DNA from: Streptomyces tsukubensis
GTDB taxonomy: Bacteria > Actinomycetota > Actinomycetes > Streptomycetales > Streptomycetaceae
Assembly: GCF_009296025.1 (NCBI RefSeq)
Contig: NZ_CP045178.1
Location: forward strand, 930,001-994,000
Length of the DNA stretch: 64,000 nt
Direction of reading: 5' to 3'
Part shown: piece by piece, positions 37,836-52,146 of the stretch
Numbering within the stretch: position 1 is the first letter of the stretch
How the letters are laid out: each line of letters starts with the position of its first letter
Position numbers and translations under genes: made by a program
Notes under the pieces: generated by a model
Told to the model about the DNA's origin: nothing
The model's input: the letters and a program-made list of their open reading frames with translations, nothing else
Databases searched by the model: none

Positions 37836-38315
37836 TCACGATCCCGCTCCCTCCGCGAGCAGCCCGTCGACGGCGCGGCCGAACATGTGGCGCCCCGCCG
37901 CCGCGAGTGGCGTGTCGAAGAGCGGGGGAAGGAACCGTACCCCCAGGGACTCACGCCACAGGACGCTGGAGCCCGAGCCGTGCGGGGCCACTTCGATCTC
38001 GGCCCAGCCGAGGACGAGGGAGCCGCGTTTCTCCAGGCGGCAGCGGCCCGGAGTATCGCTGGCCCCGCCCGGACTGTCGCTGGCCCCGGCGGACTCCGGT
38101 GGCTGCCATTCGACCACCTCCATGGGGTCGTCGAAGCGGACGGGCCCCACTCCGGTTCTGGCCACGAAGAGCGTGCCGATGTGGGTCGGCGGGGGCGTCG
38201 TCACGTCGACGCGGGTCAGGGGGACGACGTCGGCGTGCCGGTGCCAGTCGGTGAGGCGCCGCCACGCTTCCCGTACGGGCAGCGGCGAGATGCGTTCGAT
38301 CGTCAAGAGGGGCAC
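37836..38315 (-). CDS. SRPBCC-family protein
   Basis: A 159-residue START-like protein with a hydrophobic ligand cavity. The pattern is that of the polyketide cyclase/dehydrase-like family: LLTIERISPLPVREAWRRLTDW at the start, MEVVEWQPPE in the middle, SSVLWRESLGVRFLPPLFD and a C-terminal helix AAGRHMFGRAVDGLLAEG. The function is unknown. The segment around residues 75-85 contains a small SPGGASDTPG duplication. GTG at 38315 was chosen as the start. Confidence 0.8.
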   Translation of the reverse strand: MPLLTIERISPLPVREAWRRLTDWHRHADVVPLTRVDVTTPPPTHIGTLFVARTGVGPVRFDDPMEVVEWQPPESAGASDSPGGASDTPGRCRLEKRGSLVLGWAEIEVAPHGSGSSVLWRESLGVRFLPPLFDTPLAAAGRHMFGRAVDGLLAEGAGS

Positions 38316-38342
38316 GCGGGGATGGTAGGCGGGCGCAGGGCC

Positions 38343-38526
38343 GCGGGCGACGACGGCGCGCTCGGAGTGGCGCGGCCCCATGTCATCCGGCTCCCGTACT
38401 GGGCGCCCGTCCCCGTATCCGGCCCCGTCCCGGCGCGGGCGACGACGGCGCGCTCGGAGTGGCCCGGCCCCATGTCATCCGGCTCCCGTACTGGGCGCCC
38501 CTCCCCGCATTCGGCCCCGTCCCGGC
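38343..38526. repeat. Tandem 92-bp duplication
   Basis: 38343-38434 and 38435-38526 are near-identical, with only a handful of differences. The copies lie between the SRPBCC start and the end of the MerR gene. No ORF in them is supported. Confidence 0.95.
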
Positions 38527-38530
38527 GCGC

Positions 38531-39550
38531 TCAGCCCCCGGGCCCCGTGGTGGAGCTCTCGCAGATTCTGGTGAGTACGTCCACGGCCTCGCCCAGCCGC
38601 TGGGGCCGCAGTGTCCCCCGCAGATGCGGTCCGGCCCAGCCCGGCCCCGCGACCATGACGGCGGGCCCGAGCCTGGAGCCCCGTACCCCCCAGCCCGTAC
38701 CGCTCACGTGCTGCGCGAGGGGCCTGCTCGCGGTCGACCTGGACTGTGCCCAGAGCACCACGGCGCAGGGACCGGTACGGCGTACGGCCGCGTCCAGGGC
38801 AGGGGCGGGGACGGCGCCGCCGAACATCCTGACGGGCAGGCCCCGTTCGGCCAGCGAGGCGACCAGGGCCTCAATGGCGAGAGTGTGACCCTCGCCGGGT
38901 ACGCAGGCCAGCAGCACGGGCGCCCGGTCGCCCGCCTCCGACTTGTACGCGGGTCGCCGCAACGCTGTCGACACGTGCCAGGAGAGCAGGTGCTCGACCT
39001 CGACGTAACGGTCCCCGGCCGCAGCCCACTTGCGGCCCACCGCGCGCAGCGCGGGGACCATGACGTCCTCCCAGGTGGCGACGGTCCCGTACTCCGTGAG
39101 TGCCTCGTCGAGCAGCCGCTCCACGGTGGGCGCGTCGAGCCGGACGGCGGCCCGCCCGAGACCGCGGCTGATCTGCCGGGCGGCCGAGCCGGTCGGCCGT
39201 GTCCCCGGGCTCCACTCGTCCGGCAGTCGGGCCGCGGGAACCGTGCCGCCCGCCGGATCGGTGCGGCCGAACAGCAGGGCCACCTTGGCCGCCTCGGCCG
39301 TGGGTACCCCCGCGCTGGTGAGGCGGCACATCTCTTCCAGTACGAGGATGTCGGGCCCGGTCCAGCGCCGGTGTCCGCCCTCCCGTTGTCTGCTCGGCCC
39401 GATGCCGTAACGCCGGTCCCAGGAGCGGAGCGTGGCGGGGGACACCCCGATTCTTCGGGCTACGGTGCCCGTGGTGAGACCGCCTCCGGCTCCGGGGGAA
39501 GCCGCGGCGCGAGTGGCTGAGTTGTCCCTGGCGGGGGGCTGCTCGTTCAC
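38531..39550 (-). CDS. MerR regulator with cobalamin-binding domain (CarH/LitR type)
   Basis: A regulator of about 339 residues. The MerR helix-turn-helix covers about 25-95 (TTGTVARRIGVSPATLRSWDR). The helical B12-binding bundle covers about 125-205 with the conserved Trp and Glu-His (GRKWAAAGDRYVEVEHLL), and the Rossmann part carries the lower-ligand His in GEGHTLAIEAL. CarH/LitR proteins bind adenosylcobalamin, repress in the dark and let go in light. The Gly after the ligand motif is Ala here, so light response should be tested. GTG at 39550 is the likely start, within a 14-bp palindrome; TTG at 39574 is possible. Confidence 0.88.
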   Translation of the reverse strand: MNEQPPARDNSATRAAASPGAGGGLTTGTVARRIGVSPATLRSWDRRYGIGPSRQREGGHRRWTGPDILVLEEMCRLTSAGVPTAEAAKVALLFGRTDPAGGTVPAARLPDEWSPGTRPTGSAARQISRGLGRAAVRLDAPTVERLLDEALTEYGTVATWEDVMVPALRAVGRKWAAAGDRYVEVEHLLSWHVSTALRRPAYKSEAGDRAPVLLACVPGEGHTLAIEALVASLAERGLPVRMFGGAVPAPALDAAVRRTGPCAVVLWAQSRSTASRPLAQHVSGTGWGVRGSRLGPAVMVAGPGWAGPHLRGTLRPQRLGEAVDVLTRICESSTTGPGG

Positions 39551-39562
39551 ACTCCGGAGTGT
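39549..39562. promoter_or_regulatory. 14-bp perfect palindrome at the MerR start
   Basis: ACACTCCGGAGTGT overlaps the GTG start codon of the B12-MerR gene. A protein bound here would block its own transcription or translation. Confidence 0.5.
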
Positions 39563-39662
39563 AGCGACGCACAACCGGTGCGCATCGCCGTACGCCGGGA
39601 TTGCCAGGCGAGGTGCTACCGACGGCGCGTGTGGACCCAGCGGCGGGTCGGTGAGGTGAAAA

Positions 39663-39679
39663 ACGACCGATTCGGTCGT
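39663..39679. promoter_or_regulatory. 17-bp palindrome between the MerR and ACT-GNAT genes
   Basis: ACGACCGATTCGGTCGT has perfect 8-bp arms around one T. It is followed within 45 bp by the related words ACCGACCGGATCGAC and ACCGATCAGT. It lies 105 bp from the ATG of the acetyltransferase and 113 bp from the MerR start, in an AT-rich stretch, so it may serve both. Confidence 0.6.
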
Positions 39680-39767
39680 AACAACTTTTTACCGACCGGA
39701 TCGACACTTAACCGATCAGTCACAGCGCGTTCGCGATCACGCAATACCGGCCCCGCACTGTGGCCTC

Positions 39768-41222
39768 ATGAAACCTGAGACCACTCCCGTGACCACCACG
39801 AAGACACCTTCCGTCACCACCGCGCCCCACCGCTCCCACCACTGGCGCCGAGACCTGGTCGAACTGGCGGCGCTTTTCACCGCTGTGGCCGTCGCGGACG
39901 GCATCGCGAATCTGGTCGCCCACGGCCCGAGCGGGCCAGGACTCCTCATGGTCTCCGCCGCGGTACTGGCGGCCACGGCCGCCTTCCACACCTGGTGGGC
40001 ACGGCGTCACCCGCACGCTCCCCCGGCAGGTGACAGCGGCGCCCCGCCGCCCGTCCCCCTCACCGAGGGCCCGGCCGACGAGTGGAGCGACGAGACGGCG
40101 CTGTGGCGGATGCGCACCACCGTGGCCGACGAGCCCGGTTCCCTGGCCGCGCTGTGCACGGCGCTCGCCCGCGCGCGCGTCGACATCCTGAGCCTCCAGA
40201 CCCATCCGCTGGCCGAGGGCACCGTGGACGAGTTCCTGCTGCGCGCCCCGCGGGGCTTCTCCGGAGCCGACCTGGCCACCGCCGCGGCGCACGCGGGAGG
40301 CCGCGACACCTGGACCGAACGGGCGGACGCCCACGACCTCGTGGACGCACCCGCCAGGATCCTCCAGCTCGCCACACGTACCGCGCTCGACTCCGCGGAA
40401 CTCCCCCTCGCACTCCGTTCGTTGCTCGGCCGCTGCACCATCCGTTCCCGCCCGGCGGGCGGAGGCGACTGCGGGCAGGAAGGCGCCCTTGAGGGGACCG
40501 TGCTGCGGCTGCGCGCTCCCGAGGGCGGGGAGATCACCGTGGAACGGCCTCATCTGCCGTTCACTCCGACCGAGTTCGCGCGGGCCAGGGCGCTGGTCGG
40601 GCTTGACGCCCGGCTCGGGCCGAGGGTCCCGCGCGGCCAGGACCTCTACCGGCTGCCCGAGGGAGCGGCGCTCACCGTACGCCGCGCCGACCACGCCGAT
40701 CACGAAGCGGCCCGCGCCCTGCACGACCGCTGCACCGCGCGCACCCTCGGGCTGCGCTACCACGGCCCCGTCAGGGACGCCGACCGCTACCTCGACCACC
40801 TGCTCAGCCCCCGTTTCGGCAGGACCCTCGCGGTCTTCACCCCGGCCGGTCGCGCCATCGCCCTCGGCCACCTCCTGTGGGACGGCGAGGAGACGGAGGT
40901 GGCGCTGCTCGTCGAGGACGAGTGGCAGGGCCGCGGTGTCGGCACGGACCTGCTGGCCCGGCTGGTGGCGATGGCCGTGGAGACCGGCAGCGCCGGGGTG
41001 TACGCGGTCACCCAGGCGTCCAACACCGCCATGGTCGCCGCGATGCGCGGCCTCGGCCTGCCTCTCGACTACCAGATCGAGGAGGGCACGCTCGTCATCA
41101 CCGCTCGGCTTGGCACGGACGGCGCGGCCGACGCGCACGCGGTATCCGCTCCGGTCAACGCCCCGGCCGACGCGCCGATCGACGCACCGGTCGACGCGGC
41201 GACCGGACGCTCGGAGGCGTAG
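39768..41222 (+). CDS. Membrane-anchored ACT-GNAT acetyltransferase
   Basis: A 484-residue protein. Two membrane helices lie at about 30-52 and 57-77, and an ACT domain at about 111-185 (LWRMRTTVADEPGSLAALC, then RVDILSLQTHPL). A C-terminal GNAT domain at about 310-445 has acetyl-CoA motif VEDEWQGRGVGTDLL. Actinobacterial GNATs with ACT domains are amino-acid-regulated protein lysine acetyltransferases; this one adds a membrane anchor. The last 30 residues are an Ala/Asp/Pro repeat tail. The gene is divergent from the cobalamin-MerR regulator. Confidence 0.87.
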   Translation: MKPETTPVTTTKTPSVTTAPHRSHHWRRDLVELAALFTAVAVADGIANLVAHGPSGPGLLMVSAAVLAATAAFHTWWARRHPHAPPAGDSGAPPPVPLTEGPADEWSDETALWRMRTTVADEPGSLAALCTALARARVDILSLQTHPLAEGTVDEFLLRAPRGFSGADLATAAAHAGGRDTWTERADAHDLVDAPARILQLATRTALDSAELPLALRSLLGRCTIRSRPAGGGDCGQEGALEGTVLRLRAPEGGEITVERPHLPFTPTEFARARALVGLDARLGPRVPRGQDLYRLPEGAALTVRRADHADHEAARALHDRCTARTLGLRYHGPVRDADRYLDHLLSPRFGRTLAVFTPAGRAIALGHLLWDGEETEVALLVEDEWQGRGVGTDLLARLVAMAVETGSAGVYAVTQASNTAMVAAMRGLGLPLDYQIEEGTLVITARLGTDGAADAHAVSAPVNAPADAPIDAPVDAATGRSEA

Positions 41223-51544: not shown

Positions 51545-52132
51545 TCAGCGGACGAACGGCACCGAGACGGCCATGGTCAGCTCCATCGGTTCTGTGCCCT
51601 CGTTGCGGTAGGCGTGCGGGGCGTCGGCCTCGAAGGTGGCGCTGGCCCCGGCGGGGACCAGATGTTCGACGTCGGCGACGACGAGGGTCAGCTCGCCCGC
51701 GGTGACATGGAGGAGTTCGACGGTGCCGCTCGGGTGCGGGTCGGAACCGCTGCCCTCACCCGGCATCAACCGCCAGAACCACATCTCCAGAGGGCCGGGC
51801 GCCTCGGTGCCCGCGAGCAGTTGGTTGTAGCTGCCGGTCTCGGTCTTCCAGAGCCGCACCGCCTCTTCCGGCGGGACGACCCGGACTTTCGGGCCCTGTT
51901 CGTAGTCGAGCAGGGTAGTGATGCTGACGCCGAGCGCGTCACCGATCTTGACCACGGTGCCGAGGCTGGGGTTGGTGCGGGCCTGCTCGATCTGGATCAG
52001 CATGCCGCGGCTGACCCCCGCGCGGGAGGCGAGGGCGTCCAGGGTGAAGCCGCGCTCGGCTCGCCATCGTTTGACGTTGCGTCCCAGCGACTGGGTGAGC
52101 AGATCAAGATCTGACACAGACCGTCCATCCAT
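51545..52132 (-). CDS. XRE-cupin transcriptional regulator
   Basis: A 195-residue protein with an N-terminal XRE helix-turn-helix (about 12-72, RGFTLDALASRAGVSRGML, then QIEQARTNPS) and a C-terminal cupin (about 115-190, GTVELLHVTAGELTLVVAD, FEADAPHAYRNEG). It is divergent from an EamA-family exporter with only 79 bp between the starts. A perfect 16-bp palindrome overlaps its start codon, so it probably represses itself and the exporter until the cupin binds a ligand. Confidence 0.93.
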   Translation of the reverse strand: MDGRSVSDLDLLTQSLGRNVKRWRAERGFTLDALASRAGVSRGMLIQIEQARTNPSLGTVVKIGDALGVSITTLLDYEQGPKVRVVPPEEAVRLWKTETGSYNQLLAGTEAPGPLEMWFWRLMPGEGSGSDPHPSGTVELLHVTAGELTLVVADVEHLVPAGASATFEADAPHAYRNEGTEPMELTMAVSVPFVR

Positions 52133-52146
52133 CCAATATATTGGAT
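52131..52146. promoter_or_regulatory. 16-bp perfect palindrome between XRE-cupin and EamA genes
   Basis: ATCCAATATATTGGAT is fully symmetric, AT-rich and overlaps the start codon of the XRE-cupin gene. It is the best operator candidate in the window. Confidence 0.75.

What the first reader, a model, noticed from the sequence alone, without database searches (positions are those of the whole stretch)
38531..41222. Cobalamin photoreceptor-type regulator divergent from a membrane ACT-GNAT acetyltransferase
CarH/LitR proteins respond to adenosylcobalamin and light. Their known targets are carotenoid genes. Here the divergent gene is an amino-acid-sensing lysine acetyltransferase anchored in the membrane. 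The intergenic region has a 17-bp palindrome (39663-39679) with related words nearby, and a 14-bp palindrome (39549-39562) covers the MerR start. A light- or B12-controlled protein acetylation switch would be new.
Basis: partly seen in the sequence, partly recalled or inferred. Interest (0 to 1): 0.78.

Follow-up and report, generated by a model that had tools for sequence, protein, structure and literature searches.

The report
Relocated LitR light-sensor beside acetyltransferase gene
A Streptomyces vitamin-B12 light-sensor gene lies next to a protein-acetylating enzyme gene, apparently through a genome rearrangement, and its likely DNA target sites are its own promoter and a sigma-factor gene about 111 kb away, so light-controlled acetylation is not supported.

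Summary
Both genes exist as described: a MerR protein with a complete CarH-type cobalamin domain and, divergent from it, an ACT-GNAT of the AAPatA type. The link between them is not supported. The acetyltransferase has a match in 198 of 199 genus genomes. Its upstream block is conserved in 29 other loci that have no MerR gene beside it. In the listed rows that homology starts at window 39691 or later, short of both palindromes. None of 109 loci with MerR relatives holds the acetyltransferase; many hold a photolyase, a sigma factor and a DUF2867 reductase. Their promoters share an element with 11-bp direct repeats (100 of 109). A pattern drawn from it has two perfect matches in this 8.63-Mb genome: the MerR promoter, and 140 bp before a sigma gene 111 kb away. 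Where relatives have regulator and sigma apart, 10 of 10 testable sigma genes keep their own site. The 14-bp palindrome is the -10 box plus start codon. The 17-bp one is private to this genome and sits at the breakpoint. Best reading: a LitR photoreceptor controlling itself and a LitS-like sigma factor, placed beside patA by rearrangement.

The parts
38531..39550 (-). litR/carH-type gene: MerR DNA-binding domain plus cobalamin-binding domain (likely GTG start at 39550-39548; the longest ORF starts at 39574)
   Evidence: start by comparison with relatives
39558..39563 (-). -10 element TACACT of the regulator gene; with the start codon it makes the 14-bp palindrome 39549-39562
   Evidence: relatives have TATAGT at this place
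39565..39589 (-). Operator-like element with two 11-bp direct repeats (GCACCG and GCGTCG), at the regulator's own promoter
   Evidence: 19.6 bits; perfect pattern match
39663..39679 (.). 17-bp palindrome, not found in 198 other genus genomes; lies at the edge of the homology of the acetyltransferase upstream region
39691..39767 (+). Genus-wide conserved upstream (promoter) region of the acetyltransferase gene, present in relatives without a regulator beside it
39768..41222 (+). patA-type gene: ACT-GNAT acetyltransferase (AAPatA type), a neighbour and probably not a target
   Evidence: PMC6434083
35698..37695 (-). PhoD-like phosphatase gene, here on the strand opposite to the acetyltransferase gene; in relatives read it lies upstream on the same strand, which marks the rearrangement

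Best explanation
The MerR protein is a LitR/CarH-type adenosylcobalamin light sensor. In the dark it most likely binds as an oligomer to 11-bp direct repeats (GCRYCG-N5-GCGKCG) that overlap its own promoter and lie about 140 bp upstream of a LitS-like sigma-factor gene; light changes or releases it, the sigma factor is made, and photoprotection genes such as photolyase are switched on. A rearrangement separated the regulator from its ancestral sigma-photolyase-reductase neighbourhood and left it divergent from, but not controlling, the conserved patA gene. Shown by sequence: protein family, cobalamin-site residues, the two operator-like sites, patA's upstream block conserved without the regulator, the pair not seen elsewhere. 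Inferred: DNA binding, B12 and light response, direction of regulation, sigma promoter specificity, the course of the rearrangement.
For: CarH fold and invariant W183, E194, H195, E228, H230 in 105 aligned relatives. 0 of 109 relative loci hold the acetyltransferase; neighbours include photolyase in 73, sigma in 63 and DUF2867 reductase in 48 loci. Shared promoter element in 100 of 109. Two perfect pattern matches in the whole genome, at the regulator's promoter and 140 bp before the sigma ATG. In relatives with the two genes apart, 10 of 10 testable sigma genes have their own site at 89-178 bp. patA upstream block conserved without the regulator.
Against: No binding or expression data. The pattern was written after both sites were seen; with one mismatch allowed it has 25 matches against 14 for the reversed control. 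The window site scores 19.6 bits, below typical relatives, and 1 of 200 shuffles of that stretch reached 16.7. The position equivalent to CarH His132 is Ala, so the light chemistry may differ. The 17-bp palindrome is locally unusual (P about 0.006) and stays unexplained. B12-binding hits elsewhere in the genome were not examined for further photoreceptors.
Confidence: 0.78

Rival explanations
1. One reading: the regulator binds the 17-bp palindrome or its own operator and thereby controls patA by light or B12, giving light-controlled protein acetylation in this species.
For: Divergent genes with start codons 217 bp apart; the 17-bp palindrome is locally unusual (P about 0.006) and lies between them; the regulator has a complete cobalamin site.
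Against: Pair not found in other loci; patA upstream block conserved without the regulator; palindrome not found in 198 other genus genomes; it scores -17.5 bits with the operator matrix; no sigma-type element in 30 of 30 patA upstream regions.
Confidence: 0.05
2. The regulator is a horizontally acquired or diverged copy with new targets, not the ancestral sigma-linked regulator moved to a new place.
For: Its median identity to relatives is 57.0%, at the low end of their mutual spread (first decile 57.1%), and it lies outside the usual neighbourhood.
Against: The sigma gene (about 50-67% to relatives) and patA (at most 77%) are also far from sampled species, so the lineage itself is divergent; its promoter element and the sigma site match each other and the relatives; no second close copy in the genome.
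Confidence: 0.15
3. The regulator is kept but no longer binds cobalamin or senses light, and only represses itself.
For: Ala at the CarH His132 position; B12-binding Pfam match below cut-off (24.8 against 32.1 bits).
Against: All five cobalamin-site residues kept; most relatives (102 of 105) also have Ala or Glu there; H132A variants of CarH have solved dark and light structures (titles).
Confidence: 0.1

Closest known systems
LitR-LitS system of Streptomyces coelicolor A3(2) (PMC12705666, passages seen)
   Same: MerR-type B12 light sensor acting on the promoter of a sigma-factor gene; here an operator-like site lies before a sigma gene; one relative locus (L114) also has phytoene synthase
   Different: Here the regulator is 111 kb from the sigma gene and beside patA; the S. 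coelicolor proteins themselves were not compared in any call
Thermus thermophilus CarH (5c8d and related entries)
   Same: Domain order, fold, cobalamin-site residues, 11-bp direct-repeat operator spacing
   Different: About 26-28% identical; Ala where CarH has His132; repeat words differ (GCRTCG-type, not TnnACA)
Pseudomonas class II LitR (PplR/PmlR) light-response cluster (PMC9758184, passages seen)
   Same: Similar gene set near the relatives: photolyase, short-chain dehydrogenase, FAD oxidoreductase, fatty-acid cyclopropane-type synthase
   Different: Class II proteins lack part of the cobalamin domain; this one has both parts
AAPatA / SvePatA (PMC6434083: abstract, section 16 and passages seen)
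   Same: ACT-GNAT order, Streptomyces, present in nearly all sampled genus genomes
   Different: In this species it has a litR-type gene beside it; no biochemistry done here

Membership tests
CarH/LitR class I photoreceptor | N-terminal MerR domain followed by both cobalamin-binding domains | tested here: met
   Pfam and PDB sequence matches; model and fold match to 5c8d. B12-binding alone is below its Pfam cut-off; NCBIfam CarH equivalog scores 70.6 against a cut-off of 400
CarH/LitR class I photoreceptor | Cobalamin-site residues (W, EH, ExH; motif recalled from CarH literature) | tested here: met
   W183, E194, H195, E228, H230, invariant in 105 relatives
CarH/LitR class I photoreceptor | His132 of CarH (light-state ligand; role recalled) | tested here: not met
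   Ala here; Glu 57, Ala 45, other 3 of 105 relatives. Not taken as family-defining
CarH/LitR class I photoreceptor | 11-bp direct-repeat operator | tested here: met
   Two repeats 11 bp apart at both sites; spacing from PMC9304148 passages. Binding not tested
CarH/LitR class I photoreceptor | AdoCbl binding and light response | not testable with these tools
   Needs purified protein
AAPatA (ACT-GNAT protein acetyltransferase) | ACT domain followed by GNAT domain | tested here: met
   GNAT above cut-off; ACT match at 117-150 below cut-off
AAPatA (ACT-GNAT protein acetyltransferase) | Asparagine-stimulated protein acetylation | not testable with these tools
   Known for Streptomyces members in PMC6434083

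The most novel reading that the evidence does not exclude
In this one species the rearrangement has wired patA to the light/B12 sensor, through the operator about 180-200 bp upstream of patA or through a new site at the 17-bp palindrome, giving a young, lineage-specific light-modulated protein acetylation.
Probability: 0.05. Interest if true: 0.6.

Novelty: new member of a known kind. Interest (0 to 1): 0.22.

Why it matters
Gene adjacency alone misled here: comparing promoters across relatives points to the regulator's probable targets, itself and a distant sigma gene. Loci in which regulator and sigma lie apart act as a natural experiment that ties the 11-bp repeat element to the sigma gene. 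This gives a concrete, testable operator for Streptomyces LitR-type regulators and a tentative promoter element for their sigma factor.

Full report
What is there. The window lies in an 8.63-Mb genome (G000:C2:930001-994000) that I take to be Streptomyces, since the 80 named relatives listed are. The minus-strand ORF ending at 38531 encodes a MerR protein with cobalamin domains, and the plus-strand ORF 39768-41222 an ACT-GNAT acetyltransferase. Both palindromes are exact at the stated places.

The acetyltransferase. It has the ACT-GNAT order of AAPatA (PMC6434083: abstract, section 16 and passages seen), whose Streptomyces members are asparagine-stimulated. 198 of 199 sampled genus genomes have a match, though some are weak. 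In 30 loci (this genome plus the 29 best others) only this genome has the MerR gene beside it; 17 of the 29 others have a PhoD match beside it within about 1.5 kb. The upstream block CTTtACC..tC.GTCACA.a.cGTTCGTGATCaCGCAACACc is conserved across the 29 others. With window 39500-40000 as a query, 196 of 395 genomes (mixed kinship) matched, and in each listed row other than this genome the alignment starts at query position 192 or later, i.e. window 39691 (further rows were not printed). The 17-bp palindrome with six flanking bases is absent, at up to 3 mismatches, from the 198 other genomes searched.

The pair is not conserved. A tblastn of the acetyltransferase against the 118 loci then held hit only two loci of this genome (L007, L008), and 0 of 109 loci of regulator relatives; 29 of those have about 1.5-kb flanks, most of the other 80 about 5 kb. 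Their neighbours include photolyase (73 loci), a sigma-70-family factor (63 loci) and a DUF2867 reductase (48 loci), with SPW, FAD-oxidoreductase and cyclopropane-type-synthase genes in fewer (families by Pfam). My ORF caller is a simple script and missed the regulator ORF itself in 11 loci, so these counts are rough. One relative locus (L114) holds a phytoene synthase gene.

The operator. Promoters of relatives share ATCAACTCGCATCGTTTCTGCGTCGTATAGTC, with a start codon a few bases later: 100 of 109 score over 12 bits with the matrix made from them. Two words, GCATCG and GCGTCG, lie exactly 11 bp apart, the spacing of CarH direct repeats (PMC9304148, passages). The window has the element at 39565-39589, minus strand (19.6 bits), then TACACT and a GTG start. 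In that 281-bp stretch the next score not overlapping it is -17.5 bits, at the 17-bp palindrome; 200 shuffles had a mean best of -14.4 and a maximum of 16.7. The 14-bp palindrome is thus the -10 box plus start codon.

The probable targets. GCRYCG-N-TT-S-TGCGKCG has two perfect matches in the genome, and 25 with up to one mismatch against 14 for the reversed control. I wrote the pattern after seeing both sites, so that they match is no test; that nothing else in 8.63 Mb matches perfectly is informative. One is the regulator's promoter. The other, C2:858077-858093, lies 140 bp before the ATG of a sigma gene (L188:8241) that is the best match (63%) to a relative's sigma; the DUF2867 reductase gene lies just upstream on the same strand (80-82% to relatives). 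In many relatives the order is sigma, regulator, photolyase, reductase, so regulator and photolyase look removed from between the other two. The photolyase is at C2:677305-678675 (72-74% to relatives) and a phytoene synthase at C2:134222.

A natural experiment. 89 loci hold both regulator and sigma; 75 are divergent neighbours and 14 are apart. In four of the 14 (L030, L052, L068, L074) 115 bp or less upstream of sigma is held. In the other 10, all have a site over 12 bits at 89-178 bp from the sigma start (9 of 10 over 15 bits; L091 has 14.4). A site at the regulator's promoter is present in 10 of the 14. The element stays with the sigma gene when the genes are apart, as expected of a functional site.

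Downstream. 15 of 32 photolyase upstreams of relatives have GCATCC-N16-CGGAA, all with the same spacer, against a shuffle mean of 0.1 and maximum of 2. This genome's photolyase has GCGTCC-N16-CGGAA. The element was written after seeing these upstreams, it is absent before this genome's reductase, and three other matches occur in the fetched own-genome stretches. None of 30 acetyltransferase upstreams has it. That it is the sigma factor's promoter is my inference.

How it probably works. By analogy with LitR-LitS of S. coelicolor (PMC12705666, passages) and CarH (PMC9304148, passages): dark AdoCbl-protein on the repeats, light changes it, sigma is made, photoprotection genes go on. Only the sequence anatomy is shown here. 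patA appears to be a bystander.

Limits. The sampled genomes hold no close sister of this species (best acetyltransferase 77%, best regulator match 64%), so the age and persistence of the rearrangement are unknown.

Noticed in passing
window 39691-39767; loci L120-L148: The ACT-GNAT (patA) gene has a strongly conserved upstream block (GTCACA..CGTTCGTGATCACGCAACAC) across the genus; its regulator is unknown to me and would be worth finding.
   Followed up: partly
regulator residue A184; 105 relatives: The position of CarH His132 is Glu or Ala in 102 of 105 Streptomyces relatives, so their light chemistry may differ from Thermus CarH.
   Followed up: partly
upstream of photolyase genes in relatives; L189 minus strand from 8800: GCATCC-N16-CGGAA about 40 bp before the start in many of the 15 cases: a candidate promoter of the LitS-like sigma factor.
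   Followed up: partly
upstream of SPW-domain genes in relatives, e.g. L011, L034: A shared AT-rich block around CTCTACACATAAAGG...AATAAG.GCAGAATG precedes many of the 28 SPW genes found.
   Followed up: no
window 52131-52146: An AT-rich 16-bp perfect palindrome ATCCAATATATTGGAT in a GC-rich genome.
   Followed up: no
window 37836-38381 minus: A 181-residue ORF between PhoD and the regulator with no Pfam or PHROGs match.
   Followed up: partly
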